A stretch of 64,000 nucleotides of DNA from Porticoccaceae bacterium (lineage in GTDB: Bacteria; Pseudomonadota; Gammaproteobacteria; Pseudomonadales; Porticoccaceae). Under the pieces are notes generated by a model. The model had not been told where the DNA came from. It did no database searches and was given only the letters and a program-made list of their open reading frames with translations. The DNA lies in assembly GCA_902557735.1 (NCBI GenBank), contig CACEBC010000010.1:1-64000 (forward strand), in the 5' to 3' direction. How positions within the stretch are numbered: the first letter of the stretch is position 1; each line of letters starts with the position of its first letter. This document shows, one piece after another, positions 24,133 to 48,002 of the stretch. Both the position numbers and the translations under genes were made by a program.

Positions 24133-26103
24133 CTACGGTGTAACAATATTAAAGCTCGGGTTTTTTCCGTCAAAGAGCCTGAAAAATTGCAGCAAGGCAA
24201 TGAAGCTACCCTCAATTGCGAGCTCGTCAGACATCAAAGTATCTGCAAAGCCTGCCTTGTCAGTAAGCATATCAACAAAGAGGCTGTGGGTCAGCTTGAT
24301 GGACGCATCGGCCGAAAGCTGCTCATCAGTTTCACGAAAATGTAAAACAGAATTTCTGATGAATAATAGAAAAGTTTTATCCTTGTCTGTAAATTCTACC
24401 TTTACACTAATAGCCTTCCCTGAGGCAATCTCTGGATCTATATTTGTGGCCAGTGATAGCATGAAACTATCAAGAGAAACTTCTTGAATAAACGCTGAGG
24501 CAAGGCCAATATCGTTCCGACTATAGTTATTACCTTGCCTCAACTCTTTGGCTGCAGAGAGAAAAATATCCCGCCACACGCCAGACTCAGCTTGATATCC
24601 CATTTGGGTGTATGAATAAGCTAAAAGATCATAAGCTCTGGTCTTAGAGACACCTGAAAACATAAGATGGTTTAGCAGCTCTGCGGCCCAACGATATTCC
24701 CCATTATCCACCGCTTCCTCTGCATGACCTAGCACTGCTTCAACTCCTCCCATGAGTGTTATATATCGAGATGCAGTTTCAACGGCTGGAAGTTGATCAA
24801 GATGCACAGGATTACCGTCATACCAACCAAAATAATATTGGTAGACTGCTTTTACATTATGGCTAAGGGTTCCATAGTAACCTTGAACATGGCTCGCATC
24901 CGCCAAATTTGGGGGCAAATGCAGTTCTTCAGCAATTTCTCTGGGAGTCAATCCCTTATTGGCGAGACGTAGTGTCTGGTCATGGATAAAACGGTAAAGA
25001 TCTTGCTGTTGCTCGAGCTGTTGGATGATTCTGCCATTGCCCCACGTGGGCCAATGATGGCTTATAAACAAGGTTTCAACTTCAGGCAAGCGATCTATGA
25101 TAGAACCGATGTACTCGCTCCATCGATAGGCATCACGAACTTTAGCACCGCGCAAGGTAAGTATATTGTGCATGGTACGAGAGATTACTTCGGCGCCGCA
25201 AAATGCACGCTTCTCAGGCAGATAAAAGGTCATTTCAGCAGGCGCCTCTGAGTCAGGCATATTAAAAAAAATGAAACTTACTCCATCAATGATGAGAGGT
25301 TCCTCCGATTTATTGATTTCTATCGTGGGTTTTGCGATTGATGTGCTTCCCGATATAACTCGCTTCCCAAGCCCCGAATCGACATGCCCAAATACCGAAG
25401 TGTCTAGCTCGAAACCCATCATGTATGATGCCCTTCTTGCCATCGCGGGGCCGGCCAATATATTTTCACTAGTTGCTTCATACAAAAAGCCCGACGGAGC
25501 GATAATAGGAAGATCATCATTATTGGATCGAGCGATCAGATTTTGCACCCCACCAAAATGGTCTATGTGACTATGAGAAATAATGATAGCGGTGGGAATA
25601 ATAGCGCCGAGGTGAAGTTCAGCGAATTCGATGGCAGCCCGCGTCGACTCAATCGTTGTCAGCGGATCTACGATGATCCAGCCGTTCTCGCTTTTGATCA
25701 GGGTCATGTTTGCAAGATCAAAACCTCGGATTTGAAAAATATCATCTTCAACCTCAAACAAACCTCTAAAGGAATTTAATCTCGCTTGTCTCCATAGACT
25801 CGGATTCACGGTTGGGGGTGGCTCGACTCCAGTAAATATCGTGTCACTAGGACCCCAAATGGGCTGACCGTCATAGCCAAGTGGACCAATATTGGGCGCC
25901 AGCGCGATCAAACCTCGTTTTGCGTTCACGAAGTCATCATGCAGATTTAATAATCCTCGATCGGCAAAAGGTGCGTTCGCGAGAAGCGTATGTTCACTAG
26001 CGGCACGTGAAAAAACAAAGTCTTTCGAATTCAATTCTAAATCTCTGTCACAACCCCATAAAATAAGGAATACAAATAGCAGGCCACAGTTGAAGCTTTT
26101 CAT
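24133..26103 (-). CDS. Alkylsulfatase-like metallo-beta-lactamase protein
   Basis: The ~656-residue product has the layout of SdsA1/BDS1 linear alkylsulfatases, which free sulfate from alkyl sulfates. An N-terminal metallo-beta-lactamase domain has IISHSHIDHFGGVQNL (HxHxDH), AEVISRTMHNILTLRGAKVRD and FISHHWPTWGNGR. A dimerisation region (YYGTLSHNVKAVYQYYFGWY) and a C-terminal SCP2-like domain follow. The N terminus (MKSFNCGLLFVFLILWGC) looks like a lipoprotein or export signal, though Trp at -2 of the lipobox is unusual. ATG 26103 is favoured over the upstream TTG by GAGGTG six bases before it. The exact sulfate ester is unknown. Confidence 0.88.
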   Translation of the reverse strand: MKSFNCGLLFVFLILWGCDRDLELNSKDFVFSRAASEHTLLANAPFADRGLLNLHDDFVNAKRGLIALAPNIGPLGYDGQPIWGPSDTIFTGVEPPPTVNPSLWRQARLNSFRGLFEVEDDIFQIRGFDLANMTLIKSENGWIIVDPLTTIESTRAAIEFAELHLGAIIPTAIIISHSHIDHFGGVQNLIARSNNDDLPIIAPSGFLYEATSENILAGPAMARRASYMMGFELDTSVFGHVDSGLGKRVISGSTSIAKPTIEINKSEEPLIIDGVSFIFFNMPDSEAPAEMTFYLPEKRAFCGAEVISRTMHNILTLRGAKVRDAYRWSEYIGSIIDRLPEVETLFISHHWPTWGNGRIIQQLEQQQDLYRFIHDQTLRLANKGLTPREIAEELHLPPNLADASHVQGYYGTLSHNVKAVYQYYFGWYDGNPVHLDQLPAVETASRYITLMGGVEAVLGHAEEAVDNGEYRWAAELLNHLMFSGVSKTRAYDLLAYSYTQMGYQAESGVWRDIFLSAAKELRQGNNYSRNDIGLASAFIQEVSLDSFMLSLATNIDPEIASGKAISVKVEFTDKDKTFLLFIRNSVLHFRETDEQLSADASIKLTHSLFVDMLTDKAGFADTLMSDELAIEGSFIALLQFFRLFDGKNPSFNIVTP

Positions 26104-26311
26104 AAAACACCTCGAATACAAGTCATGAGACCTGCGTTGGTTGATTCCGCGTCGTTGAATGTTATGTGTCGTTACTTAACGGCTCGATTATGAGGTTATT
26201 AACTCAAATCGCAAGATATACCTCAAACAAGATCTTGAAAGCGCCAAGTATACTGTGCACGGGGCATCGGACAGAAAGTGAGAGTAATGAGCTTTTCATT
26301 GTCAAAGCTTC

Positions 26312-29904: not shown

Positions 29905-30190
29905 TCTAGTATCCTCCTGTCTGAAATTGCACAAAATCTGGGAAGTGGTTAACGGAGGCGCATTTTACACTACCCAAACGATTGGAACTATCCATTGTTG
30001 GTTATTAATTTATAACGGAGTCTTCTCGATATTTTGGCTCTATCTCGAATTCTTGTAATAAAATAAAAAGCCCTAACAGGAGATCTTGATCCTTTAACTT
30101 AAGTTGCAGCTATTACTATTCACAAGCAGATACATTAACCAAAATAAGTGTGAGACAATACAGGTCCAACACAAGTTTGGGGCAGAATTA

Positions 30191-31408
30191 ATGACAAACG
30201 AACTAAGATATGATGAGACGGATATCGATGAGTTTCGGAAAGAAGTCAGTGCATGGCTACAGGCAAATAAACCTCGTGACCCAGGGTTTCTTCTACCTCA
30301 AACTTTTCTTGAGATAGGTTCTGAGGAGGTTCTGGACTTTTTACGTGAATGGCAGTTTAAGGTGTGGTCCGCTGGATATCTTGGCATGGCTTGGCCCAGA
30401 GAATATGGTGGTGGCGGGCTTCCTATCATTTATCAGCAAATTGCGGACGAAGAAATGAAACGCCTCCGAGTTCCCATACTTTTCAACGTGATTGGATTGG
30501 GCTGGGCTGGACCTCTGATTATCAACATGGGAAACGATTATGAGAAAAAAACCTATCTTAAAAATATCCTGAGTGCCGAGGACATATGGTGCCAAGGATT
30601 CTCTGAGCCAAATCATGGATCAGACCTTGGGAGTATTCAAACACAAGCGAAGCGAGAAGGAGATGAATACATCATAAATGGTAATAAAATATGGACTACT
30701 CTTGGCAACTTTGCAAAATATATGATCTTACTAGCAAGAACGGAACCCAAGACAGAACGCCGTTATGATGGGTTATCTTTTTTTCTCGCACCCATGAAAG
30801 TTAAGGGAATTTCGACCAAACCAATTCAAAAACTTACTGGTGAGTATGGTTTCACCGAGACCTTTTTTGAAGATGCTCGGATACCGGCAAGTAGTCTGAT
30901 GGGCGAAGAGGGATGGGGTTGGAGAATCGCCATGCTTACCCTCCAATATGAGCGCGGTGCGGAGGCCGGGGCGGCTGGTGGTCCAGCTATGACACCTATA
31001 TATATGAGCGATTTGATCGCTATGACGCGTAAAATTACGCGCGAAAATGAACCACTAATTAGTGATCCAGTCACTCGCGATGAACTTGTAAAGTTCATGA
31101 TCGAGGAAAAAGCGATATTACTGGGCGAAAAACGAGCAAATGTCCCTCAACTATGCTCAGATTATCCGCGGTCGCTTTCGTTATCCCATAAACTCCGAAC
31201 CAGTGAGCACTTTAGAAAGATGAGACAGTATGCCATTACCCTTCAAGGAGCTAAGGGAGGACTTTATGTTGGCGATGACGAAGCCATTCAAGGAGGATTT
31301 TGGCAAAGAGCCTATCTCAATAACTTTGGTATCACGATAGGTGGAGGAACGAGTCAAATTCAGACTAATATAGTAGCGGAACATGTCCTCGGACTCCCGA
31401 AGGATTGA
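30191..31408 (+). CDS. Acyl-CoA dehydrogenase, probable catalytic (alpha) subunit of a pair
   Basis: This is an FAD acyl-CoA dehydrogenase of 405 residues, with WPREYGGGGLPIIYQQI, CQGFSEPNHGSDLGS, NGNKIWTTLGNFAKYMILLA and, near the end, ITIGGGTSQIQTNIVAEHVL. The Glu usual in Y-E-G-T of MCAD is Gly here; the likely base is the Glu in QYERGAEAG, the position used by IVD and by mycobacterial FadE alpha subunits. The next gene, 32 bases on, encodes a shorter ACAD lacking that Glu, so an alpha2beta2 enzyme is inferred. ATG 30191 is chosen because the upstream extension has no family similarity. Such pairs act on steroid side chains or branched acyl-CoAs. Confidence 0.87.
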   Translation: MTNELRYDETDIDEFRKEVSAWLQANKPRDPGFLLPQTFLEIGSEEVLDFLREWQFKVWSAGYLGMAWPREYGGGGLPIIYQQIADEEMKRLRVPILFNVIGLGWAGPLIINMGNDYEKKTYLKNILSAEDIWCQGFSEPNHGSDLGSIQTQAKREGDEYIINGNKIWTTLGNFAKYMILLARTEPKTERRYDGLSFFLAPMKVKGISTKPIQKLTGEYGFTETFFEDARIPASSLMGEEGWGWRIAMLTLQYERGAEAGAAGGPAMTPIYMSDLIAMTRKITRENEPLISDPVTRDELVKFMIEEKAILLGEKRANVPQLCSDYPRSLSLSHKLRTSEHFRKMRQYAITLQGAKGGLYVGDDEAIQGGFWQRAYLNNFGITIGGGTSQIQTNIVAEHVLGLPKD

Positions 31409-31440
31409 AAACATAATTCTCGGCCATAGGCGGCGACCGC

Positions 31441-32568
31441 ATGAAAAATACAAACTTGGAACTTGCATTCACAGAAGAACAATCCATGGTTATGGATGCT
31501 GCCAAGGAATTTTGCAGAGAAAACTCAGATATTAAGACGGTAAGAGCTCTTCTGTCATCAGAACTTGGCTTCAATATGGAGATCTGGACAAAAATGGTAG
31601 AGCTTGGTTGGAGTGGTATAACCATACCTGAGAGTTTTGGAGGGACAGACCTTGGAATAAGCGCACTGATTCCTGTCGTCGAGAATATGGGACATTATCT
31701 TCTTACTGCCCCGCTCATAACCTCAGCAATCGCCGCTCAAGCAATTTTGCATTGCGGTACAACTGAGCTCAAAGATATCTGGCTCTCGCGCTTGGCAAAA
31801 GGTTGTATTGGAACTTTAGCGATATTGGAAAATGAAGACATCGGCTCAGCAGTAACAATGACCGCAATTGACAAGGGCGGCAAAATTGAACTTCGAGGAC
31901 GTAAGATTTTGGTTTCAGACGCGGCCGCTGCAGATTTCTTTCTAGCGCTCTGTAAATTTGAAACTGATCTAGTTCTAGTCCTCGTTTCATCCGACCAAAT
32001 CAAATCAGATTGTATATTGGAAAGAAAGCTTATAGATGAAACAAAACGAGCTGGGGATATTGATTTTAATGGAGTCGTCGTAGATGCAAATGCCATGGTG
32101 AAAGTTACGCCACGGTCGATTAAAGATTTGAAACTTATTGGTGCCCTGCTGCATGCCGCCGAGGCTACCGGCTGTTGTTCGGCAACTTTAGATAATATAG
32201 TCAGTTACTTGACGACGAGGACTCAGTTTGGACGGCTCATAGGCTCCTATCAGGCACTGAAGCATCCTACCGCAGAAATCTTGATTCAAATGGACTCCGC
32301 AAAATCGCTAATCTATCATGCGGCTACCCTGACAAGTAGCTCAAACTTTTGCATCGATACGGAGATCGCCTGCCGAATGGCGAAAGCACAAGCCAACGAC
32401 GCTCTGCTGTTTGCCGGTGACCGAGCGGTGCAATTTCATGGTGGAATGGGTTTTACTTATGAGTGCGATGCGCAACTATATATTCGACGAGCCCAATGGG
32501 CACAGCATCAATACGGAGATTCACAGCACCATCGTTTTCATCTTGCGGAGCTATTACTGAAAGATTGA
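31441..32568 (+). CDS. Acyl-CoA dehydrogenase, probable beta subunit of a pair
   Basis: The 375-residue protein has LELAFTEEQSMVMDAAKEF, WSGITIPESFGGTDLGISAL, and the C-terminal FAD/dimer segment VQFHGGMGFTYECDAQLYIR. In place of the catalytic helix-G Glu there is LLHAAEATG, aligned with no acidic base at the active position. This matches the non-catalytic partner in alpha2beta2 acyl-CoA dehydrogenases. It is on the same strand just after the 30191 gene. That the two associate is an inference. Confidence 0.84.
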   Translation: MKNTNLELAFTEEQSMVMDAAKEFCRENSDIKTVRALLSSELGFNMEIWTKMVELGWSGITIPESFGGTDLGISALIPVVENMGHYLLTAPLITSAIAAQAILHCGTTELKDIWLSRLAKGCIGTLAILENEDIGSAVTMTAIDKGGKIELRGRKILVSDAAAADFFLALCKFETDLVLVLVSSDQIKSDCILERKLIDETKRAGDIDFNGVVVDANAMVKVTPRSIKDLKLIGALLHAAEATGCCSATLDNIVSYLTTRTQFGRLIGSYQALKHPTAEILIQMDSAKSLIYHAATLTSSSNFCIDTEIACRMAKAQANDALLFAGDRAVQFHGGMGFTYECDAQLYIRRAQWAQHQYGDSQHHRFHLAELLLKD

Positions 32569-32709
32569 TGAGTCATGCCAATTCGAATGTCTCACGATAC
32601 AAAAAGATCTTCACTGTTTCCAGATTCGCTGCAATACAGATCAATGACGTGTCTTTCAAACCCCCAACCCCCGTCTCGCCATTGATCCGCGGACTATGAA
32701 TTGGAATTA

Positions 32710-34614
32710 ATGGAATTGAAAAAAAAATTATTACTTTTTTTAGCATCCTTGGCCGGCGTAGTTTTAATTTTGGTCACGAATGAGACCAAAGTCTTAATAA
32801 GTAAAGATCCTCAGGCCTCGCCAAAACTGTCAAGAATTATCGAGCCTGCAACCTTGAGAGCGACTGAACATGGACCCATAGTTGGTTCTAACGACAAAAA
32901 TGATACGCATGTTTGGTTTGGAATACCCTACGCTAGACCGCCCATTGGGAAGCTGCGATGGCGAGAACCTCAAACGGTGCAGGCTTGGTCAAAGGAATTT
33001 GAAGCCCTTTATAGGCAGCCGGGGTGCCTTCATTCCAGAACCTTTATAGATCTTAAGTCGGGAAAAAAACAAGTTTTTGCCGGAGCAGAGGACTGCCTCT
33101 ATATAGATATTTGGGCACCTCGTTCTGCAGCTGAAAATGCCGCACAAACCGAGGAGCAACTTCCAGTTGTGATTTGGTTAAATGGGGGCGGTGATAAAAT
33201 TGGGGCATCAAGCTATGTGAGCGGCTATGGATTTGCGGGAAGCCAGCAAGTCGTTTTTGTATCAGTAAACTATCGCCTAGCGCACCTCGGTTTTTTTTAT
33301 CACAGAGCCACAAGAAATACCGCCGAAACTTCAGGCGAGAGATCAGGTAACTATGGGCTCCTCGATATAATTTACGCGCTCAACTGGGTGCAAAACAATA
33401 TCGCAAACTTCGGTGGTGATAGCAAAAACATCACGGTCATCGGTGCGGCGGATGCGGGTTCCCACGCATCTGCACTCATTGCATCGCCATTCGCAGAGGG
33501 ATCTTTTCAAAAAGCGATCATTCAGGGCGGATCCATGAAATCCCTCTCAAAATCAGAGGCTGAGCATTTTCATGATGATGATGTACCTGGAGCTAGATCT
33601 AGTTCAAATGAAGTCATTTTAGATCTTCTCCTACTTCGAAAAGTCGCTGCAGACAGAGATGAAGCGAGGAGCGATATCAACACTATGAGTGATGAAAGTC
33701 TTAGAGCTTTTCTCGAAGGACAATCTGCAGAATCAATAATCGGTGTCGATGATGATCACCGAGGCGAGACAGGAGAGCTCCATAGTCTTGTTCCACTTCC
33801 TATCAGAGATGGTTTTGTTATTCCGGAAATGAGCCTCTATGAACTTTTTAGCGATCCGATTAGCTATAACAATGTACCCATGATAATAGGGTCAAATCTC
33901 GATGGCGTGAAATCTGTCATGTTGTTTGAACCAGATTATGTTGCCTGGATCCTTAATCGTGTGCCTATAATTAAGGATCGAGACTTTTTTAAAATGATGT
34001 CTAAATTACAATCTGATTTAAAATTCATTTTAGGTGTCCAAGAGCCGGTAAAACTGCTTACCAGAAGTCGAAGAGATGTTCAGGCGCTGCCCAATATCTT
34101 CGTCTATCGCTTCGACTGGTCTAATATTCAATCCAACCTCTTTGGAAATTGGAGCCAATTATTGAGGGCGAGTACTTCACTCGAGCTTGATTTCGTGCTT
34201 GATAATTTTCATCAGAGGGAAGGACTCTCCATCTGGTCGAGTGAGACAAACGATTCAGAGCGATACGCGCTATCAATGTCCATAATGGATTATTGGGGTA
34301 GTTTCGTTTACACCGGAAACCCCAGTCGTGGCCGATCGGGGACTCTTGAAGAATGGGTGCCTTGGCAAGACCGCTCAAAAAACACCCTGTTGTTAGATAA
34401 CCCGCTTAAAGGCCAGATACGCATGGAGGAGCTTCGGTATGAGATCGAATCATTCAAAAACAGAGTCATATCGTTACTCTCAGAGGTCAAAACAACCAGA
34501 AAGTGTAAAGTAGCCGCAGAAACACTCCAGAAATCAACGGCATCGAGCGCGCTAGTGCCGGACTATTCAAAATGGATCTCTTACCCCTCGCTTTGTCTCG
34601 ACAACCAGCAGTGA
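32710..34614 (+). CDS. Type-B carboxylesterase-like protein without the catalytic serine
   Basis: The ~634-residue protein has the cholinesterase/carboxylesterase fold: VWFGIPYARPPIGKLRWREP, EDCLYIDIWAP, VSVNYRLAHLGFF, NYGLLDIIYALNWVQNNIAN. The nucleophile elbow, normally G-E-S-A-G, reads AADAG (GAADAGS at residues 245-251), so Asp248 stands at the Ser position. The usual His in G-x-x-H-x-x-E-L is Thr489 (RASTSLELDFVL), the oxyanion motif HGGG is NGGG, and the Glu region is GSNLDGV. It is thus probably not a normal esterase. An N-terminal hydrophobic segment (KKKLLLFLASLAGVVLILV) suggests a membrane anchor or export signal. ATG 32710 is preferred to TTG 32701. Confidence 0.82.
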   Translation: MELKKKLLLFLASLAGVVLILVTNETKVLISKDPQASPKLSRIIEPATLRATEHGPIVGSNDKNDTHVWFGIPYARPPIGKLRWREPQTVQAWSKEFEALYRQPGCLHSRTFIDLKSGKKQVFAGAEDCLYIDIWAPRSAAENAAQTEEQLPVVIWLNGGGDKIGASSYVSGYGFAGSQQVVFVSVNYRLAHLGFFYHRATRNTAETSGERSGNYGLLDIIYALNWVQNNIANFGGDSKNITVIGAADAGSHASALIASPFAEGSFQKAIIQGGSMKSLSKSEAEHFHDDDVPGARSSSNEVILDLLLLRKVAADRDEARSDINTMSDESLRAFLEGQSAESIIGVDDDHRGETGELHSLVPLPIRDGFVIPEMSLYELFSDPISYNNVPMIIGSNLDGVKSVMLFEPDYVAWILNRVPIIKDRDFFKMMSKLQSDLKFILGVQEPVKLLTRSRRDVQALPNIFVYRFDWSNIQSNLFGNWSQLLRASTSLELDFVLDNFHQREGLSIWSSETNDSERYALSMSIMDYWGSFVYTGNPSRGRSGTLEEWVPWQDRSKNTLLLDNPLKGQIRMEELRYEIESFKNRVISLLSEVKTTRKCKVAAETLQKSTASSALVPDYSKWISYPSLCLDNQQ

Positions 34615-34769: not shown

Positions 34770-35168
34770 CTAAAGTATCGCGAAAGCGATGTTACACCCC
34801 AGTATCACAAGGGTCAGAGATACACTAATTCGATGTAATAGCTTAAATCGACTTTCGTCCCCGTTATCACGGCTTCTATTTGTCATTGGAATCAATACAT
34901 ATGCAAGAAGTGCCAGAATCATTGACGCGATAGGCATTGGAATAAGCTCTGCTTGATCGCTATAGATCACAATCATCGCATTAACTGCGCTTAGAAAAGC
35001 GATCAGTAAAAAGAATAATGGAAATATCTTTCTTAGAAACAAGGAGGCATCTGGCCCTGAGAGAACAGTAAAAACAGCCGGGGCTGTAACGGCTGTTTGA
35101 AAGATTATTATTCCGATAACACAACCGCTTAAAATAAAAGGGAGATTTTCCATAAAGTTTCCAATCAT
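34770..35168 (-). CDS. TMEM205/DUF4149-like membrane protein
   Basis: The product of about 132 residues has four predicted membrane helices (for example NLPFILSGCVIGIIIFQTAV, IFPLFFLLIAFLSAVNAMIV, ASMILALLAYVLIP, ISVSLTLVILGCNIAFAIL). The layout, with a conserved early part (FQTAVTAPAVFTVL) and NRSRD in a loop, fits the DUF4149 family, whose function is unknown. Start at ATG 35168 or 35153. It is the third gene of the minus-strand trio after yccA and a 68-codon gene. Confidence 0.7.
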   Translation of the reverse strand: MIGNFMENLPFILSGCVIGIIIFQTAVTAPAVFTVLSGPDASLFLRKIFPLFFLLIAFLSAVNAMIVIYSDQAELIPMPIASMILALLAYVLIPMTNRSRDNGDESRFKLLHRISVSLTLVILGCNIAFAIL

Positions 35169-35193
35169 TCTAGATGTTCCGCCACATGACCTG

Positions 35194-35400
35194 TTAAAAC
35201 AATATTGTTGAAAGAGCAATCGTCGCTGCTAAAGCCAGACTGATCAGGATTATTTTCCACAGAGAGAATTGCCTTGTAGACCAATCGATGCGGTCTTCTC
35301 TGTCAAGTTGTTTTTTGGACGCCTTGAATCTGCCCAGGTAAAAGAAGACACCCAGGGACAGAAGCGCAACACTGCCAAAGATTAATGTGTTAAGTTCCAC
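35194..35400 (-). CDS. Small hypothetical membrane protein (68 aa)
   Basis: The frame overlaps the yccA-like stop: TAG and a GTG start share bases (TAGTG at 35402-35398). The peptide has a first hydrophobic segment (LNTLIFGSVALLSLGVFFYL), a charged loop (GRFKASKKQLDREDRIDW) and a second hydrophobic segment (WKIILISLALAATIALSTIL). No known family is recognised. The two-helix pattern, the coupled start and the absence of other genes on either strand here support a real gene. An upstream extension of the frame inside yccA is not needed. Confidence 0.55.
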   Translation of the reverse strand: MELNTLIFGSVALLSLGVFFYLGRFKASKKQLDREDRIDWSTRQFSLWKIILISLALAATIALSTILF

Positions 35401-36194
35401 TAACGACTTCGAAGTTTCATCAGTAAACGCAGAATCTCGAGGTAAAGCCAGATCAGTGTTACCATAAGGGAGAACGCACCGAACCACTCCATATATTTGG
35501 GTGCATTATACTCGGCGCCTTGCTCGATGAAATCAAAATCTAGTACTAGGTTAAGAGCAGCTATAGCGACCACAAACAAACTGAAACCGATACCAAAAAG
35601 ACCATTTGAATGAATAAACCCGATACCCGACCCAAAAAAGCTCATAACAAAACTCACTAAATAGAGGACACCTATGCCCATGGTGGCAGAAACAATCATA
35701 AGTCGGAAGTTTTCAGTAGGCTTAATAATACCCGTCTTATAGCAAAATAAAAGTGAGGCCAATGTGCCAAAAGTCAGACCAATTGCCTGGATTACAATAC
35801 CAGGAAATTGAGCTTCAGCAATCGCAGAAATACCTCCCATAGCTAACCCTTGGCCTAACGCATATATCGGAGCTGTAATTCCTGCCCAATGCTTTTTAAA
35901 AATTGTTATTAGGGCCATTACGAATCCAACGACACTGCCAATAATCATAAAGGGAGCTGCAGCGGCAGGATTTCCGGAACTGAAAAAAAGATTCCAAGGC
36001 CATGAAGCGGATATCAGAACTAGCAGCAACAGGATACCAGTCTTATTAACGGTACCCTCCAGAGTCATGAATTGAATTTCCGTATCCATAGATGCGTCGG
36101 CGAAGCCAGCAGGAGGTTCCTCACGGAAGGTGGCATCGCTCATGGCCGGATTTCCAGAGCGGCCAAACATCTCCAATGCACGATGATTTGACAT
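35400..36194 (-). CDS. Bax inhibitor-1/YccA family membrane protein
   Basis: The protein of about 264 residues has a ~50-residue cytosolic N terminus with a family-like start (SNHRALEMFGRSGNPAMSD), seven hydrophobic segments (for example TGILLLLVLISASWPWNLFF, MIIGSVVGFVMALITIF, FGAFSLMVTLIWLYLEILRL) and the conserved LDFDFIEQGAEYNAPKYMEW near the C terminus, which carries acidic residues linked to ion passage in BI-1 proteins. In bacteria the YccA branch modulates FtsH; others leak calcium. ATG 36194 is chosen because AGAGGA is 8 bases upstream. Confidence 0.87.
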   Translation of the reverse strand: MSNHRALEMFGRSGNPAMSDATFREEPPAGFADASMDTEIQFMTLEGTVNKTGILLLLVLISASWPWNLFFSSGNPAAAAPFMIIGSVVGFVMALITIFKKHWAGITAPIYALGQGLAMGGISAIAEAQFPGIVIQAIGLTFGTLASLLFCYKTGIIKPTENFRLMIVSATMGIGVLYLVSFVMSFFGSGIGFIHSNGLFGIGFSLFVVAIAALNLVLDFDFIEQGAEYNAPKYMEWFGAFSLMVTLIWLYLEILRLLMKLRSR

Positions 36195-36389
36195 AAGCAT
36201 TTTCCTCTTAAATTTAATTTCTCAAGTACAACGATCTATAATATTTATTATACGAGGGGCAAATGGAAATGGACAATTAACACCAGGAAAATGATAATCA
36301 TTTTTTATAGCTCAATTACAAAATTTGTACTGAGTCTCAGCCAGCACACGTTATACTGTTTCAATAGAACTATCTAACTGGATCAAATT

Positions 36390-37393: not shown

Positions 37394-38464
37394 TCAGGAT
37401 GCGGAATGCGTCTGACAGAATTGCGCAATTTCATCTAGCGCTCGGGTAGCTGAACTCAAACTTGGATGAAATATCTGAAATACGTGTGGCATGGATTGCC
37501 ATCGTTGCAAGCATACAGGTGAACCCGCTTCTCTCGCTTTGTTTGCATAACGACACGCGTCATCAAACAGCATCTCATTGTCACTGACTTGTATTAGCAA
37601 AGGCGGCATTTTTGACAGATCCCCCAGCAAAGGAGAGACTGATGGATCATGAATCGAAATTTTGTTAGTCAAAAAGAATAATAAACCGTAGAGAAATGAG
37701 GGAACCCGATTTAATAATTTAAAAAGTGTCTTAAGGATCAGGTCCGACGAAAAGTTATCAGTAAAACTTGGGCTATCAAGTGTCGAATCAGTAAGAGGAG
37801 ACATTGCGACAACAGCGTGAGGAACTTGCCATCCCGAATCGCGAAGCCAAGCCATCAGCGATAATGTCAAATTCCCTCCTGCCGAATCGCCGCCGATAAA
37901 TACAGTCTTTGCCGGAGTCCTGCCATCAGGGCCATTGTCCAATAGAAATCGGTAGGTGTTTCTGCAATCCAGCATTGCATCTTGTCTATCATTCTCAGGC
38001 ATCAAACGATAGTCAATGGACAACACCGCGCTGCCGGTAACTTCAGACAACCTACTTGTGATGGAGCGATGGCTTAGCGGACTACCTGCGCAAAATGCAC
38101 CACCATGTATATACAAGAAACGCTTTTTAGGATCAATATTCCCTGTTAGCACCCATTCTGCTGACACACCATTTGCGTCGATTTGGTTTATGTCACTGTC
38201 AATTTTCACATCAGCAAAAAAACTGTCCATCACTCCACGAATCGCACTTATACGTTTTCCGACAGACAAACCATCCATGGTTGCAGATACGGATTGCAGT
38301 CGAGATGAGACCGATGATAAATTTTGTACATCATCAGGGTCTAAAGCGAAAAACTCTCCAGACAGATAATCGTATCGCCTAAGCTTTTGACGCACAACTG
38401 CCCCTCTGGATAGCTTCAACAAGATTAGCAATGTTAGCAGCGATCCCATCTCCCAGAATAGCAT
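37394..38464 (-). CDS. HSL-family (type IV) esterase/lipase
   Basis: This is an alpha/beta hydrolase of 356 residues of the hormone-sensitive lipase group. It has the oxyanion motif YIHGGAFCAGSP (HGGA), nucleophile FIGGDSAGGNLTLSL, acid in QVSDNEMLFDDACRYA and His in SMPHVFQIF. An N-terminal hydrophobic segment (GSLLTLLILLKL) probably anchors it in the membrane. Enzymes of this group hydrolyse short to medium acyl esters. It follows two acyl-CoA dehydrogenase genes on the same strand, 14 bases away, so it is probably in their operon. Confidence 0.87.
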   Translation of the reverse strand: MLFWEMGSLLTLLILLKLSRGAVVRQKLRRYDYLSGEFFALDPDDVQNLSSVSSRLQSVSATMDGLSVGKRISAIRGVMDSFFADVKIDSDINQIDANGVSAEWVLTGNIDPKKRFLYIHGGAFCAGSPLSHRSITSRLSEVTGSAVLSIDYRLMPENDRQDAMLDCRNTYRFLLDNGPDGRTPAKTVFIGGDSAGGNLTLSLMAWLRDSGWQVPHAVVAMSPLTDSTLDSPSFTDNFSSDLILKTLFKLLNRVPSFLYGLLFFLTNKISIHDPSVSPLLGDLSKMPPLLIQVSDNEMLFDDACRYANKAREAGSPVCLQRWQSMPHVFQIFHPSLSSATRALDEIAQFCQTHSAS

Positions 38465-41604: not shown

Positions 41605-43596
41605 TTAGTTCGTTTCAATATCAATCAATAGCTGATCAGCAGCCACCTGGTCACCAGGAGACACATGTACCTCAGAAACCAAACCATCCAAATCAGAAGA
41701 GATTTCATAATGCATCTTCATGGCTTCTAGAACTGCAACGGTTTGACCCTTCTTGACGGATTCGCCGACCTCAACTAGTACTTTCAAAAGTAAGCCATGC
41801 ATGGGCGCCTTCGTTCGACCCTCCCCAACCGAATCTGACCTGAGTCCCTCTTTTTGAATCAGGTCTCGATATAGAGCCTCTCGGCCTTCGATAGACATAT
41901 AAGTAAAGCCCCGCTCGGAGGACTGATGTTTAACCGCGTAACGCCTGTTTCCTATCGAAACAACTGAATCGAAATCATCGACACGATGGACTTTAATTTC
42001 GACTGATTGCTCTTCTCCTTGAACTAGATATCTCTCTTTCCTGTCGATAGATGACACATGCAAATCATAGATTACTTCGTCAAATTTATAGTACTTGCGC
42101 GATGCGAGAACACCAACATTTGTCCAATCCTTTAACTCAGGCGACACGAATACACTAGACTGATGATATTTCCTGTAATCAATCACCAGTTCGATCACAG
42201 AGGCAATCGCAACATGTTTGAAGGTTGGCCTATGTTTCTCGAACGATTCGCCTTCAAACGCCTCAGAAATAAATCCAGTTGTGGCATTTCCATCGATGAA
42301 TGTTTCATTTTCTAAACAATCGATAAGGAACTCTCTATTATTAGATATTCCAAACAACGCGGTTTCTTTCAAGGCACTCACTAGCTGTTTTCTAGCTGTT
42401 TCCCTGTCGGAGCCCGAGCAGATAATCTTCGCTAGCATGGGGTCATAAAATGGTGATATGTTCTGACCGCTCTTTATCCCCTCATCAATACGGATATTTA
42501 ATCCCTCTGCTGGAGACCACAAATCAATTTTCCCAGTTGCTGGCAAGAAACCTCTGGAGGGCTCCTCAGCATACAGGCGAGCCTCTATTGAATGGCCATT
42601 AAAATTTACTTCCTCTTGAGTCAATGGAAGGGTTTCTCCCTGAGCCACACTGATCTGCAAAGCAACCAGATCAAGACCAGTTATAATCTCCGTCACTGGA
42701 TGCTCAACCTGAAGCCTAGTGTTCATCTCGAGAAAATAAAATTTTTCAGATTCATCGAGCAAAAATTCCACAGTACCCGCACCCGTATAATTGACGGTTT
42801 TGGCAACTTTAATGGCGGCCCTGCCCATGATTTCGCGAAGTTCTAGCGTAATGACCGGGCATGGTGCCTCTTCTATGACTTTCTGATATCTCCGCTGGAC
42901 AGAGCAATCACGCTCACCCAAGTGAATCATATTGCCGAACTCATCCGCAAAAATTTGTATCTCGATATGCCTAGGGCTTTCTATCACTTTTTCAAGAATT
43001 AGCGTATCTGAGCCGAAAGCAGATTTAGCTTCCGCACGAGCAAGAGCGAGCCCGTTGATCAGCTGATCTGGACTATCTATTTGACGCATTCCCCGGCCAC
43101 CTCCACCAGCGGCTGCTTTGATCATTATGGGAAATTCAATTCCACTACTAGCGTTAACGAACGCTGAGTCCGTTTGATCTTCGCCTTGGTAACCAGGAAT
43201 ACATGGTACTTGAACATCTAACACTCGTCTCTTTGATTGAGCCTTGTCCCCCATAATCGCGATAGCTTCGCTCGTCGGACCTATAAAAATCAGCCCCTTA
43301 TCATTGCAAGCTTCTGCGAAAGCGGCATTTTCGCTCAAGAAACCATAACCAGGATGAATTGCGCCTGCCCCGCTGTCTAAAGCAGCGTTTATGACCGCTT
43401 CATGCTCCAAATATGATTCTGAGACTGGTCCGGGTCCTACTCTAAAAGCTTGATCAGCAAGGTGCACGTGCGGAGCATTCGCGTCAGGATCAGAATAAAT
43501 CGCGACAGTCTTATAACCGAGCGTTTTCGCAGATCGTAAAATCCTGCAAGCAATCTCACCTCGGTTGGCCACCAAGATACTGTCAAAGCGTTTCAT
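41605..43596 (-). CDS. Acyl-CoA carboxylase, biotin carboxylase/biotin carrier subunit (AtuF/LiuD-like)
   Basis: This subunit carboxylates biotin with ATP and bicarbonate. The 663-residue protein has the biotin carboxylase domain (RFDSILVANRGEIACRIL, ATP grasp KAAAGGGGRGMR, EMNTRLQVEHPVTEII), a linker BT domain (about 450-580), and a C-terminal biotinyl domain with EAMKMHYEIS. The size fits the alpha subunit of methylcrotonyl-CoA or geranyl-CoA carboxylase. The start is ATG 43596 with AGGAA seven bases upstream; a longer frame lies inside the hydratase gene. It follows the hydratase after 4 bases and works with the carboxyltransferase at 44459. Confidence 0.9.
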   Translation of the reverse strand: MKRFDSILVANRGEIACRILRSAKTLGYKTVAIYSDPDANAPHVHLADQAFRVGPGPVSESYLEHEAVINAALDSGAGAIHPGYGFLSENAAFAEACNDKGLIFIGPTSEAIAIMGDKAQSKRRVLDVQVPCIPGYQGEDQTDSAFVNASSGIEFPIMIKAAAGGGGRGMRQIDSPDQLINGLALARAEAKSAFGSDTLILEKVIESPRHIEIQIFADEFGNMIHLGERDCSVQRRYQKVIEEAPCPVITLELREIMGRAAIKVAKTVNYTGAGTVEFLLDESEKFYFLEMNTRLQVEHPVTEIITGLDLVALQISVAQGETLPLTQEEVNFNGHSIEARLYAEEPSRGFLPATGKIDLWSPAEGLNIRIDEGIKSGQNISPFYDPMLAKIICSGSDRETARKQLVSALKETALFGISNNREFLIDCLENETFIDGNATTGFISEAFEGESFEKHRPTFKHVAIASVIELVIDYRKYHQSSVFVSPELKDWTNVGVLASRKYYKFDEVIYDLHVSSIDRKERYLVQGEEQSVEIKVHRVDDFDSVVSIGNRRYAVKHQSSERGFTYMSIEGREALYRDLIQKEGLRSDSVGEGRTKAPMHGLLLKVLVEVGESVKKGQTVAVLEAMKMHYEISSDLDGLVSEVHVSPGDQVAADQLLIDIETN

Positions 43597-43600
43597 AGAA

Positions 43601-44431
43601 TCATTCCTGAACAGATTCTGCAGCCCAATAAGGTTTTCGTTTGTGAACGAAGGCCGCAACACCCTCAATACCCTCTTTGCTGAGCATACAGTTTGCAAAA
43701 CTTTCGGCCGCATGATCTAGCACTTCTGATCGCGGCTGCCTCAGGGATTCGAATAAGATGTTTTTAGTGGCAGCGTTTGCCCCTGGAGCACAAACCGCTA
43801 CTTGTGAAAGAATTTCATTACATTTTTCTTCAAGTCCCTCACAACTCGACACGACAAAATGTGCTATCCCCAGTGCGGCCGCCTCCCGCCCATTTAAACG
43901 AGCTCCGGTAAGCATCAGGCGACGAGCATTAGTCAGACCAATACGTTCTCGCACAAAAGGAGCGATTTGCGCAGGCGGGATACCAAGGCTTGTTTCACTG
44001 AGTCTGAAACGCGCATCTGCTGTCACAATAGTAATGTCACCGACACACGCCAGCCCAAGCCCGCCTCCAATAGCAGCTCCCTCAACAAGCATAATGGTCA
44101 CCTGAGGTTGCTCATTTAGCTGGCTCATCAAATAACCGAATGACCGGTTACCTTTCGCAATCAAACCCGCATCAGCCAGCTGTGTATCTGATTTAAAATC
44201 TTTGATATCAGCACCTGCGCAGAAAATACCCCCTATCCCTCTAATAACGATTGTTCGGATACCTCTATCGTCTTTTACGAGTTTAAGTAACTTTGCAAAC
44301 TCATCAATCATAGCCGCCGAGAGCGCATTTTTTGCCTTCGGACGATTAAACCAAATCCTAAGAACGCTTTTCTCGCGTTTCGTGATTATCGTTTCATTCT
44401 CCAGCAAACTAATATCCTCAGAAACACTCAT
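43601..44431 (-). CDS. Enoyl-CoA hydratase (isohexenyl- or methylglutaconyl-CoA hydratase-like)
   Basis: This is a crotonase-fold protein of 276 residues, with FNRPKAKNALSAAMIDEF, FCAGADIKDF (oxyanion loop), EGAAIGGGLGLACVGDITI and ETSLGIPPAQIAPFVRERIG. The last motif is like those of AtuE/LiuC hydratases, which act on the product of geranyl-CoA or methylcrotonyl-CoA carboxylase. The place between the two carboxylase subunits supports that role. AAAGGAGAC precedes the start. Confidence 0.87.
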   Translation of the reverse strand: MSVSEDISLLENETIITKREKSVLRIWFNRPKAKNALSAAMIDEFAKLLKLVKDDRGIRTIVIRGIGGIFCAGADIKDFKSDTQLADAGLIAKGNRSFGYLMSQLNEQPQVTIMLVEGAAIGGGLGLACVGDITIVTADARFRLSETSLGIPPAQIAPFVRERIGLTNARRLMLTGARLNGREAAALGIAHFVVSSCEGLEEKCNEILSQVAVCAPGANAATKNILFESLRQPRSEVLDHAAESFANCMLSKEGIEGVAAFVHKRKPYWAAESVQE

Positions 44432-44458
44432 TTAAGTCTCCTTTATTCATCACTCTCA

Positions 44459-46081
44459 CTACAATCGTGAGACCCCATAACTATTAGGTCGAATGATTCG
44501 CCTTCGAGCTTCAAATACGGTTTCCAGCAGCATACCTAAAGTGTTTCTTGTTTGACGGGGATCTATCATTCCATCATCCATAAGATGCCCCGATGTATAA
44601 AAAGCATCTGACTGATCATCAAATTTCATCGCGAGCATTTTTTCCTGTTGCGCAAGCAACGCTTCATCAATCTGGATGCCCGAGGCATCTGCCTTGCCGC
44701 GAGCAACGATGGACATAGTTTTAGCCGCTTGCTCGCCACCCATGACCCCGGTAGACGCATTTGGCCAGGTATACAAAAAGTCAGGCTCGAATGCTCGACC
44801 ACACATACCATAATTCCCTGCACCAAAACTGGCTCCCGTCATCATAGTAATTCGAGGAACCTCTATGTTTCGGACTGCCTGAATCATCTTGGATCCGTGC
44901 TTAATCATTCCTGATTGTTCAGATTTAGTGCCTACTATGTATCCCGTTGTATTTTGCAGAAAAATCACAGGAATATTTGCCTGATCAAGTAACTGCATGA
45001 ATTGGGTCGCTTTATTAGCCCCTGCGGGATCTATAGGCCCATTATTGCCGATGATGCCGCATGCATGACCAAAAATTTCGGACTGTAAGCAAACCGTAGA
45101 AATTCCTATTTGAGGCTTAAAATCTAGGAAATCCGATTTATCCACAACGCGGGCAACCACTTCACGCATATCATAAGCAACGCGGTAGTCTACTGGTACC
45201 ACTCCTGCTAACTCATCAGGATCATATATGGGCGGTGAGCTGTTTCTCCCCTTAATTTCTTCGGCACTTTCGTTCCACGCCAAGCGTTTAACTACGTCTC
45301 GCGCAATTTGTATACCATGCCCATCATTTTCTGCCACATAATCTACAAGACCTGATACTCTCGCATGCATTTCAACGCCGCCCAGCTCCTCTTCTAAAGC
45401 AATCTCGCCCGTCGCTGCTTTTAACAATGGTGGTCCTGCCAGAAAGGCACGGCCATTATTTTTCACACCGATTACATAGTCACTAAGCCCAGGCATATAG
45501 GCACCTCCAGCAGTGGACGAGCCGTGCAAAATGGAAATAACAGGGATGCCTGCCTTACTGAGCTTTGCTAAGCCTCCAAACAATGCACCACCTTCACTAA
45601 AACCTTCAACTGTATAATTCAGCAGGTCCCCACCAGCACTCTCGACAAGATGCACAAATGGTAACTTCTGTTCTAATGATATTTGTTCTGCGCGACGAAT
45701 CTTATAACCCCCTGCCGCAGTCATTGAACCGGCCATAATCCCGCTGTCGTCAATAACAATCATACAACGGGTTCCAAAAATAAAGCCGACACCAGCTATC
45801 ACGGTAGATCCGGGTATTGATTTTTCGGGGTTTTTTGTATCCATTAAATATCCGGATAGATTTCCAATTTGCAAAAAGGGCATGCTGGGGTCCAAGAGCC
45901 TGGCAAGCCTATCACGCGGGGTCAATTGTTTACGCGCATCAAATCTTGCCTTCCTTTGCTCAGAAAGATCTGCTCCTCGGGCGTTTAGTTTCTCCAACTT
46001 TTGAACCAGCTCAAGCATCTCCAGCCGATTTCTTTTAAAACCTTCGGATTGCCGCTTCACTTTCGAATTGAATACTGCCAT
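44459..46081 (-). CDS. Acyl-CoA carboxylase, carboxyltransferase subunit (AtuC/LiuB-like)
   Basis: This subunit moves the carboxyl group from biotin to an enoyl-CoA. The 540-residue protein has TPRDRLARLLDPSMPFLQIG, LVESAGGDLLNYTVEGFSEG, SSTAGGAYMPGLSDYVIGV, AGPPLLKAATGEIALEEELG and TKSEQSGMIKHGSKMIQAV. The size and order resemble the beta subunits of 3-methylcrotonyl-CoA and geranyl-CoA carboxylases. The AtuA-like gene next door tips the balance toward a geranyl-CoA-type substrate, but this cannot be settled by eye. It starts 1 base after the AtuA-like stop. Confidence 0.88.
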   Translation of the reverse strand: MAVFNSKVKRQSEGFKRNRLEMLELVQKLEKLNARGADLSEQRKARFDARKQLTPRDRLARLLDPSMPFLQIGNLSGYLMDTKNPEKSIPGSTVIAGVGFIFGTRCMIVIDDSGIMAGSMTAAGGYKIRRAEQISLEQKLPFVHLVESAGGDLLNYTVEGFSEGGALFGGLAKLSKAGIPVISILHGSSTAGGAYMPGLSDYVIGVKNNGRAFLAGPPLLKAATGEIALEEELGGVEMHARVSGLVDYVAENDGHGIQIARDVVKRLAWNESAEEIKGRNSSPPIYDPDELAGVVPVDYRVAYDMREVVARVVDKSDFLDFKPQIGISTVCLQSEIFGHACGIIGNNGPIDPAGANKATQFMQLLDQANIPVIFLQNTTGYIVGTKSEQSGMIKHGSKMIQAVRNIEVPRITMMTGASFGAGNYGMCGRAFEPDFLYTWPNASTGVMGGEQAAKTMSIVARGKADASGIQIDEALLAQQEKMLAMKFDDQSDAFYTSGHLMDDGMIDPRQTRNTLGMLLETVFEARRRIIRPNSYGVSRL

Positions 46082-46082
46082 C

Positions 46083-47954
46083 TCATGACCTTTTAAATAA
46101 TTGGCGAGAGGATTTCATCTCTTGGGATTGTGAACAATTCGTCATGTCAAAGATAGATTGACTAACCGGAATCTCTACGTCAAGCAACAGTTGTGAAAAT
46201 CCTTTACCTTGAGCATCATTGCGAATGCTTGCCACACCGCCTCCTCCTAGCACCTCATGAATGAGAAAGTTAACTCCATTACATCCTGGCATCAAAAAAC
46301 GTTCAACATCAGAAGGATTATCAATCGTTGTTCGATCTGGAAGAAAATGCGCAAGCCGATTAGCCACGATCCTTTCGGTCAATTCGTAATAAATATAGGG
46401 AAGGTATTCGGGACGTCTGGCAATTATACCAACATTCGCCTTGTCGCCTTTATCCCCACTACGCGCAAATGCCAGTTTTATCAGCGGCACTTTTACTGGC
46501 TTCTCTTGAGACGGAAATGACGGTGGGCTTGGCCTGACAATAGGTTTATTCGGAACAGTTTCGTCTATCGGTTCTGGGCATTCACAAACGAAATCGTCAA
46601 TTTTAATTGAAATATTGACAAAATTTTTTGGAAGCAGAAAAGAGTATAATCTGACAACAGGGGACGGTTTCGGTCTGCCTCCCTGAAAACCTGATAAGCC
46701 CGGCGGTGTCGCGAGCCCGAGACCAACTATTTCCCTCAGTAATATCCCTATCCCCGCTGAAACAGGATGCTTTGCAGCCACTTTGATGGCCACTTCTCGA
46801 GGGCTGATTACAGAGGCATGAGACCCATACTGACTTTCTGCTCCTATTATTTCTGTGCTCATCTCAGAATACTCTGCTAATCCACTCATTTTGCAAGCTT
46901 CGCAGGCAGCCGCTAGTGCCGCATCAGCAAATTTTTGAGCTTTTTTGGCAGCATCCACACCGTAAAACGTCATTGTTGTACCGCCGCGAAATCCGTCCAA
47001 ATAGGTCGCACATACCTTGTAATTTTTGGGAGCGGCTCGACCCAAGGCCCCGGACACCATGACTTCATTTTTGTTTAATTGTTTCAACGTTACATTTGAA
47101 AAGTCACAAACGACATCGGGAAGGATGTAGGCTTGAGGATCGCCAATCTCGTAAACCATTTGCTCTGATATAGTTCCCACGGTAACCAATCCTCCGCTAC
47201 CCGCGGGCTTTGAACAGACGAAGTTGCCATGATCATAGATTTCTATAATCGGATAACCAATGTGAGCCAAATCAGACACCTGATCCCAGTCTGTAAAATT
47301 TCCGCCGGTAGCTTGTGGTCCGCACTCAAGAATGTGCCCTGCAAGAGCGCCCATGGCAAGTCGATCTAGATCCTCTCGTCTCCAACCAAAGGCATCAATG
47401 CATGCTCCTAAGGTTACCGCGCTGTCTACGCACCTGCCTGTGACAACAATATCGGCCCCTGCGGCCAAGGCTTTTGCTATAGGAAATGCGCCCAAATAGG
47501 CATTGATACTTGCAACATCAGAGATGGAGGGAAAGGGTTCTCCTGAAAACATCTCGCAAATATCCGAGCCATAAAACTGGTCTCGAAAATCAAATAGGTC
47601 GTCACCTAAAATGCAGGCAACTTTGAGATCGAGTCCCTGCTCCGCAATAATGCCTCTCAATTCCGTTACACATGATCTAGGATTAACGCCTCCGGCATTC
47701 GATATAATCTTAGTGCCTTGCCTTGCAATTTCTTTTAAGTTTGGCTTCATTGCTCCTGTCAAAAAGTCTGAAGCGTAGCCGGCGTCCTCATCCTTCACTC
47801 GAGCCCTCGCCATAATAGACATGGTGATCTCAGCCAGATAGTCATAAACGATGACGTCGAGACTGCCCGTTTTCAACAGCTGGTGTGTGGCCCGAGCTGC
47901 ATCCCCCCAAAAGCCGCTTGCACCACCAATTCGAAGCTGTTTTTTCTCTTTCAT
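46083..47954 (-). CDS. Acyclic terpene utilisation protein AtuA-like (DUF1446)
   Basis: The product has about 623 residues. An N-terminal DUF1446 domain (IGGASGFWGDAARATHQLL, DVIVYDYLAEITMSIMARA, NAGGVNPRSC) is followed by a C-terminal AtuA-like ferredoxin-fold domain (LAFARSGDKGDKANVGIIAR). AtuA is essential for citronellol and geraniol growth in Pseudomonas, but its reaction is unknown. The start is taken at 47954, where GGTGAG is six bases upstream; ATG 47960 overlaps that site. It heads the operon with carboxyltransferase, hydratase and biotin subunit. Confidence 0.88.
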   Translation of the reverse strand: MKEKKQLRIGGASGFWGDAARATHQLLKTGSLDVIVYDYLAEITMSIMARARVKDEDAGYASDFLTGAMKPNLKEIARQGTKIISNAGGVNPRSCVTELRGIIAEQGLDLKVACILGDDLFDFRDQFYGSDICEMFSGEPFPSISDVASINAYLGAFPIAKALAAGADIVVTGRCVDSAVTLGACIDAFGWRREDLDRLAMGALAGHILECGPQATGGNFTDWDQVSDLAHIGYPIIEIYDHGNFVCSKPAGSGGLVTVGTISEQMVYEIGDPQAYILPDVVCDFSNVTLKQLNKNEVMVSGALGRAAPKNYKVCATYLDGFRGGTTMTFYGVDAAKKAQKFADAALAAACEACKMSGLAEYSEMSTEIIGAESQYGSHASVISPREVAIKVAAKHPVSAGIGILLREIVGLGLATPPGLSGFQGGRPKPSPVVRLYSFLLPKNFVNISIKIDDFVCECPEPIDETVPNKPIVRPSPPSFPSQEKPVKVPLIKLAFARSGDKGDKANVGIIARRPEYLPYIYYELTERIVANRLAHFLPDRTTIDNPSDVERFLMPGCNGVNFLIHEVLGGGGVASIRNDAQGKGFSQLLLDVEIPVSQSIFDMTNCSQSQEMKSSRQLFKRS

Positions 47955-48002
47955 ACGCATCTCACCAAAAATAATTGCCTGAAGTCATTTACTATGGTGA
48001 AG

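What the first reader, a model, noticed from the sequence alone, without database searches (positions are those of the whole stretch)
32710..34614. Carboxylesterase-like protein with Asp in place of the nucleophilic Ser and Thr in place of the His
The elbow reads GAADAGS instead of GESAGG, so Asp248 lies at the Ser site. The His site is Thr489 and HGGG is NGGG. The rest of the fold is well kept and the frame is intact over 634 codons, so the gene seems maintained. It could be a binding or adhesion protein, like neuroligins in animals, or an enzyme with an Asp nucleophile as in haloalkane dehalogenases, though the missing His speaks against the latter.
Basis: partly seen in the sequence, partly recalled or inferred. 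Interest (0 to 1): 0.55.

Follow-up and report, generated by a model that had tools for sequence, protein, structure and literature searches.

The report
Bacterial carboxylesterase that lost its catalysis
In one genus of marine bacteria an ester-cutting enzyme has lost its catalytic residues but is still kept intact by selection, so it probably now works by binding something rather than cutting it.

Summary
The gene is real: 32710-34614, 634 aa, with a confidently predicted carboxylesterase fold. Thr489 at the His site and Asn158 in HGGG hold; the acid is lost too (Gly399).

This is a property of the locus. The gene sits in the same place in 11 of 14 genus genomes; in two of the other three the contig ends there. 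His survives in 1 of 11 and Ser in 7 of 10. Ten syntenic orthologues in a neighbouring genus, including SAR92 bacterium H231, keep both. His-less but Ser-keeping orthologues are under purifying selection about as strong as intact ones (dN/dS 0.09-0.15 versus 0.085-0.12). In the window's own subclade it is weaker (0.33, 95% 0.19-0.61, C-terminal half only). Ser was lost at least twice (p-AU 0.001).

Best reading: a maintained, membrane-anchored pseudo-carboxylesterase that binds without hydrolysing. The Asp-nucleophile idea is not supported; neuroligin is an analogy only. Ligand, partner and function are untested.

The parts
32710..34614 (+). Triad-less type-B carboxylesterase homologue, 634 aa, ATG start (an in-frame TTG lies at 32701)
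   Evidence: AlphaFold model mean pLDDT 89.5, pTM 0.91
32713..32796 (+). N-terminal hydrophobic helix, residues 2-29: likely membrane anchor or signal (inference)
   Evidence: helix 2-29 in the model; Lys-rich start followed by a hydrophobic stretch
33112..33159 (+). Residues 135-150, WAPRSAAENAAQTEEQ: loop conserved in this clade but variable outside it; candidate interface
   Evidence: mean entropy 0.20 in clade A versus 1.36 outside for the 12-mer that starts at 135
33181..33192 (+). Residues 158-161, NGGG in place of HGGG (oxyanion loop)
   Evidence: His in 8 of 10 clade-A rows and 95 of 106 outgroup rows
33442..33459 (+). Nucleophile elbow, residues 245-250, GAADAG: Ala247 at the Ser site, Asp248 at the following (Ala) site
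   Evidence: structure boundaries
33904..33906 (+). Gly399 at the triad acid column
   Evidence: Glu 98 and Asp 5 of 103 outgroup rows
34174..34176 (+). Thr489 at the triad His column
   Evidence: codon ACT
30104..32568 (+). Two acyl-CoA dehydrogenase genes just upstream on the same strand (30104-31408, 31441-32568); next to the esterase in SAR92 H231 as well
34770..36200 (-). Flanking genes used as synteny markers: DUF4149 (34770-35219) and Bax-inhibitor-like BaxI_1 (35400-36200)
41605..47960 (-). Neighbouring acyclic-terpene-utilisation-like genes: biotin carboxylase, enoyl-CoA hydratase, carboxyl transferase, AtuA
   Evidence: pathway name recalled

Best explanation
The gene encodes a maintained pseudo-carboxylesterase. 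Its ancestor was an ordinary Ser-Glu-His type-B carboxylesterase next to an acyl-CoA dehydrogenase pair and, in this lineage, terpene-catabolism-like genes. At the base of this genus the protein shifted (polar residue in place of the Ala after the nucleophile, loss of Trp438, a newly conserved surface loop). After that the His, then in some lineages the Ser and acid, were lost. The protein keeps its fold, its likely membrane anchor and most core residues. SHOWN: triad loss in the window protein; same-locus orthologues with the triad; purifying selection on orthologues without His; Ser lost at least twice. INFERRED: it no longer hydrolyses esters as a serine esterase (near certain for the window protein, less so for the Ser-keeping orthologues); it is anchored in the inner membrane facing the periplasm; its job is now to bind a ligand in the old pocket (for example a hydrophobic ester, alcohol or acid) or a protein partner through the conserved surface, without chemistry.
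For: Ser-His-acid all replaced in the window protein. Same locus in 11 of 14 genus genomes. His kept in 1 of 11, Ser in 7 of 10 genomes with that region (G006 counted once), while 10 of 10 syntenic orthologues in genus g10 keep His and Ser (the Ser of L151 was seen). dN/dS of five His-less (Ser-keeping) pairs 0.094-0.152 versus 0.085-0.118 in four intact pairs. Two variants co-assembled in G006: dN 0.025, dS 0.219 over 207 codons. Window versus G005, both without Ser and His: 60.8% aa identity and no stop in either, against a neutral maximum of 22.0% and a minimum of 15 stops in 200 simulations. The His column differs (Q, K, K) among G003, G006 and G010, which are about 93-95% identical, so that site alone is free. 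Model pLDDT 89.5; VIA Z 41.7 to 8wdm_A, rmsd 2.4 over 455 residues.
Against: No ligand, partner, expression or assay data. In the window's own subclade selection is weaker (G005/G011 C-half dN/dS 0.325, bootstrap 0.19-0.61), and the window protein departs at 45 of 142 sites conserved outside the clade (37 in G005, 16-22 in six other clade members). The gene has the lowest identity to G005 of the 11 genes compared (61% versus 69-94%). One orthologue (G012) is split by a frameshift. Loss of His in one event is not rejected (p-AU 0.116). G004 keeps Ser, Glu and His and may still be active.
Confidence: 0.62

Rival explanations
1. A pseudogene in slow decay: the esterase became dispensable in this genus and the intact frames are leftovers.
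For: Lowest identity among 11 genes compared with G005; weaker constraint in the window's subclade; G012 copy frameshifted; the ACAD pair and AtuA are missing from several of these genomes.
Against: dN/dS of 0.094-0.152 in the His-less, Ser-keeping group, as low as in intact orthologues. G005/G011 upper bootstrap bound is 0.61. Window versus G005 has no stops where neutrality gives at least 15. The gene is present at the locus in all 11 genomes where it is assembled.
Confidence: 0.15
2. A repurposed enzyme: the pocket catalyses something else without the serine triad, for example with Asp248 or by oxyanion stabilisation alone.
For: The residue after the nucleophile is polar in all clade-A rows (Ser 7, Asp 2, Asn 1, Thr 1 of 11) and Ala in 104 of 108 outgroup rows; HGGG is kept in most orthologues.
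Against: No residue at 247, 248, 399 or 489 is conserved across the clade; Asp248 is not at the nucleophile position; no His at the base position.
Confidence: 0.12
3. A protein-protein module working like neuroligins or other cholinesterase-like adhesion proteins, or as the inactive partner of an active esterase.
For: Neuroligins are type-B fold proteins without a working triad (PMC5943944, passages); clade-specific conserved loop 135-150; neuroligin structures match with Z about 39.
Against: The Z of neuroligin is no better than that of active esterases. The anchor is N-terminal. The active esterase gene next door (abhyd3, 37394-38464) is missing at the locus from the G003/G006/G009/G010/G012 group, so it is not a constant partner.
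Confidence: 0.1
4. Alignment or assembly artefact: a nearby Ser and His form the real triad, or the substitutions are sequencing errors.
For: Ser251 lies near the elbow; the genome is a draft estimated 69% complete.
Against: Pattern shared with independent genomes at the same locus; the gapless alignment and structure boundaries fix position 247; Ser251 is at a column that is Arg in 10 of 11 clade-A rows.
Confidence: 0.02

Closest known systems
Syntenic carboxylesterase of SAR92 clade bacterium H231 (L047) and its g10 relatives
   Same: Same locus next to the same acyl-CoA dehydrogenase pair, same length and N-terminal helix, 37% identity
   Different: Full triad: GESAGA elbow, RDE acid, GAGHGLE His
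Bacterial type-B carboxylesterases: pNB esterase (1c7i), Thermaerobacter esterase (8wdm), fumonisin B1 esterase (8s6d)
   Same: Whole fold
   Different: They are described as esterases; the window protein lacks Ser, His and acid
Animal cholinesterase-like proteins without a triad: neuroligin, neurotactin, glutactin, gliotactin, thyroglobulin C-terminal domain
   Same: Type-B carboxylesterase fold kept without a functional triad (PMC5943944, passages)
   Different: Bacterial, N-terminal anchor, separate origin from an intact bacterial locus; no partner known
Haloalkane dehalogenases (Asp nucleophile)
   Same: alpha/beta-hydrolase fold with Asp near the elbow (recalled)
   Different: Asp is one residue past the nucleophile position and the His is missing

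Membership tests
Pfam PF00135 COesterase (homology family) | Profile score above the curated cut-off | tested here: met
   260.3 bits versus cut-off 27
Pfam PF00135 COesterase (homology family) | Type-B carboxylesterase fold | tested here: met
   Model pLDDT 89.5; 8wdm_A Z 41.7, 455 aligned, rmsd 2.4
Active serine carboxylesterase | Nucleophilic Ser in GxSxG elbow | tested here: not met
   Ala247
Active serine carboxylesterase | Catalytic His | tested here: not met
   Thr489
Active serine carboxylesterase | Catalytic Glu or Asp | tested here: not met
   Gly399
Active serine carboxylesterase | Hydrolysis of an ester | not testable with these tools
   Needs an assay
Pseudoenzyme (triad-less homologue kept by selection) | Descent from an enzyme with intact residues | tested here: met
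   Intact syntenic orthologues in g10; clade A within A+g10 at support 100/99
Pseudoenzyme (triad-less homologue kept by selection) | Purifying selection after loss | tested here: met
   dN/dS 0.094-0.152 in Ser-keeping His-less pairs; 0.325 (0.19-0.61) in the G005/G011 C-half
Neuroligin-type adhesion protein | Ectodomain with a C-terminal transmembrane anchor (topology recalled) | tested here: not met
   The long hydrophobic helix is N-terminal, residues 2-29
Neuroligin-type adhesion protein | Binding to a partner on another cell | not testable with these tools
   Needs a binding experiment
Asp-nucleophile hydrolase (haloalkane dehalogenase type) | Asp at the elbow tip | tested here: not met
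   Ala247 at the tip; Asp248 follows
Asp-nucleophile hydrolase (haloalkane dehalogenase type) | Catalytic His | tested here: not met
   Thr489

The most novel reading that the evidence does not exclude
A bacterial counterpart of the animal cholinesterase-like non-enzymes: in one genus a same-locus carboxylesterase switched to a binding role at the base of the genus and then lost its triad residues piecemeal and repeatedly, giving a living series from full triad (G004; intact orthologues in g10) through Ser-only (G003, G006, G009, G010, G012, G013) to none (window), under sustained purifying selection.
Probability: 0.45. Interest if true: 0.68.

Novelty: new variant of a known kind. Interest (0 to 1): 0.5.

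Why it matters
Triad-less members of the carboxylesterase family are known mainly from animals. Here the change can be followed within one bacterial genus, at one locus, with intact orthologues next door and intermediate states alive in nature. That makes the question 'does the new role come before or after the loss of catalysis?' directly testable. It also warns against annotating these genes, which pass the COesterase profile, as esterases.

Tried and rejected
Asp248 as the nucleophile: rejected by alignment and structure boundaries. Ser251 as a displaced nucleophile: its column is Arg in 10 of 11 clade-A rows. A Ser-Lys dyad in the K-bearing orthologues: near-identical species carry Q at that site. 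A tie to the terpene pathway as a general explanation: AtuA was found in 8 of 14 genus genomes and is missing from G003, G006, G009, G010 and G012, which keep the gene; the first ACAD was found in 2 of 9 genomes searched. Absence in G001 and G002 as gene loss: their contigs end at the locus; G007 lacks the neighbour NPD too at the threshold used. Faster evolution in the window than in G005: significant with 1 of 6 outgroups. A single loss of His: not rejected, p-AU 0.116; one-codon parsimony favours His at the base of the clade, 8 versus 10 steps, which is weak evidence. IQ-TREE codon models gave no omega in the parsed output, so pairwise NG86 values were used. Viral contigs held one partial relative, not followed. 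Neuroligin Z is tied with many esterases and says nothing on function.

Literature: searches brought no title on a triad-less bacterial type-B carboxylesterase. Searches returned nothing; one search listed 15 of 272. Only listings were seen except PMC5943944 (passages). Exact-word searches of one open-access library cannot show absence from print.

Full report
What is there. Window 32710-34614 (+) is an open frame of 634 codons that matches Pfam COesterase with 260.3 bits against a cut-off of 27 and, by sequence, pNB esterases and other type-B carboxylesterases of known structure. An AlphaFold model built on the window protein and 55 relatives has mean pLDDT 89.5 and pTM 0.91. It matches carboxylesterases and cholinesterases over the whole domain (Foldseek; VIA Z 41.7 to 8wdm_A, 455 residues, rmsd 2.4). 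Residues 2-29 form an N-terminal hydrophobic helix, probably a membrane anchor or signal (inference).

The catalytic site. This holds in HMMER and MAFFT with 119 relatives and fits the strand and helix limits of the window model (strand to 246, helix from 249) and of the intact orthologue L047 (strand to 247, helix from 249, Ser248 between). His is Thr489, the acid is Gly399, and HGGG is NGGG. In 108 outgroup rows Ser is kept in 108 of 108, His in 97 of 97 with a letter, Glu or Asp in 103 of 103, and position 248 is Ala in 104 of 108. That outgroup contains 79 of the 80 loci kept from the genome-contig scan or more, plus loci from related genomes; the scan used patterns outside the triad and kept the best 80 of at least 589.

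It is a property of the locus. Of the 14 genomes held for the genus, 11 have the gene, each beside the same flanking genes. In G001 and G002 the contig ends at the locus. G007 shows no match to the flanking NPD gene at the threshold used. In the 11, His is kept only in G004; the others have Q, K, R, N or T. Ser is kept in 7 of the 10 genomes where that region is present, and is Ala in the window, G005 and G008. Position 248 is never Ala (Ser 7, Asp 2, Asn 1, Thr 1 of 11 rows, G006 counted twice). Trp438, kept in all 10 g10 orthologues, is lost in all 9 clade-A rows of that alignment.

Where it came from. A search of 112 family genomes brought ten orthologues in another genus of the same family (g10, L144-L153), all next to the second ACAD gene, as in the window. 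All ten have His; nine show Ser in the alignment and the tenth in its other open frame. L150 is identical to L047, named SAR92 clade bacterium H231, Porticoccaceae, so the window comes from a genus of that family (rpoB identity 84% to H231). The tree puts the window's clade (support 100/99) beside the g10 orthologues. Ser was lost at least twice: holding the three Ser-less rows together is rejected, p-AU 0.00098. For His a single loss is not rejected (p-AU 0.116), although the best trees nest His-bearing G004 inside the clade and one-codon parsimony prefers His at the base (8 versus 10 steps). Both groups were named after seeing the tree.

Is it maintained? For five pairs of His-less, Ser-keeping orthologues dN/dS is 0.094-0.152; for four pairs of intact g10 orthologues it is 0.085-0.118. 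Two variants co-assembled in G006 give dN 0.025 and dS 0.219 over 207 codons. The window's own subclade lacks Ser and His. Window versus G005 is saturated at silent sites (dN 0.288, dS 1.80) but keeps 60.8% aa identity and no stops, where 200 neutral simulations gave at most 22.0% identity and at least 15 stops. G005 versus G011, C-terminal half only, gives 0.325 with bootstrap 0.19-0.61: weaker, still below 1. In the three His-less full pairs tested by halves, the C-half is less constrained than the N-half; among three intact pairs this holds in one. G003, G006 and G010, about 93-95% identical, differ at the His column (Q, K, K), so that column is free while the protein is not.

Against the reading. 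The gene is the least conserved of 11 compared between the window and G005 (61% versus 69-94%). The window protein departs at 45 of 142 sites conserved outside the clade, G005 at 37, six other clade members at 16-22. A relative-rate test is significant with 1 of 6 outgroups. The G012 copy is split by a frameshift, real or from assembly. Functional decay in the window's branch is therefore not excluded.

What it may do. The window copy follows two acyl-CoA dehydrogenases and lies near a set with AtuA, a carboxyl transferase, a biotin carboxylase and an enoyl-CoA hydratase, which resembles acyclic terpene utilisation (pathway recalled; related papers seen only as listings). An esterase that feeds such a pathway is a plausible ancestor (inference). 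But five genomes that keep the gene have no AtuA match, and the first ACAD was found in 2 of 9 genomes searched, so the present role is not tied to that pathway. Residues 135-150 became conserved in this clade (entropy 0.20 versus 1.36 outside for the first 12) and are a candidate interface. I commit to a membrane-anchored binding protein derived from an esterase. The ligand or partner is unknown.

Comparison. Animals have type-B fold proteins without a working triad: neuroligin, glutactin, gliotactin, neurotactin and a thyroglobulin domain (PMC5943944, passages). The window protein works like them in the sense of a kept fold without catalysis, but is not a member: it arose separately from a bacterial locus and has an N-terminal anchor. 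My searches listed no paper on a bacterial case, in one open-access library and with exact words only.

Noticed in passing
L139:8739-10443 (-), genome G012: The orthologue is split into two overlapping frames by a frameshift; real break or assembly error cannot be told.
   Followed up: partly
L135:1-627 and L136:11400-12026, genome G006: Two contigs overlap over 627 bases at 93.6% identity inside this gene, and contigs of G001, G002, G006 and G011 end in or beside it; this may reflect strain variation at the locus.
   Followed up: partly
L129:8222-9088, L130:7743-8630, L132:7924-8835, L133:9512-10375: In G004, G010, G003 and G013 a frame that looks by eye like an XRE-type helix-turn-helix regulator lies between MaoC and the esterase, where other members have the ACAD pair. 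No family search was made.
   Followed up: no
window 41605-47960: AtuA-like, carboxyl transferase, biotin carboxylase and enoyl-CoA hydratase genes in an acyclic-terpene-utilisation-like arrangement; AtuA matched in 8 of 14 genus genomes.
   Followed up: partly
window 37394-38464 (-): A second, unrelated esterase gene (Abhydrolase_3-like by eye, GDSAGG elbow) beside this locus; missing at the locus from the G003/G006/G009/G010/G012 group.
   Followed up: partly
window 24133-26121 (-): An alkyl-sulfatase-like protein with dimerisation and C-terminal domains (Pfam Alkyl_sulf_dimr, Alkyl_sulf_C).
   Followed up: no
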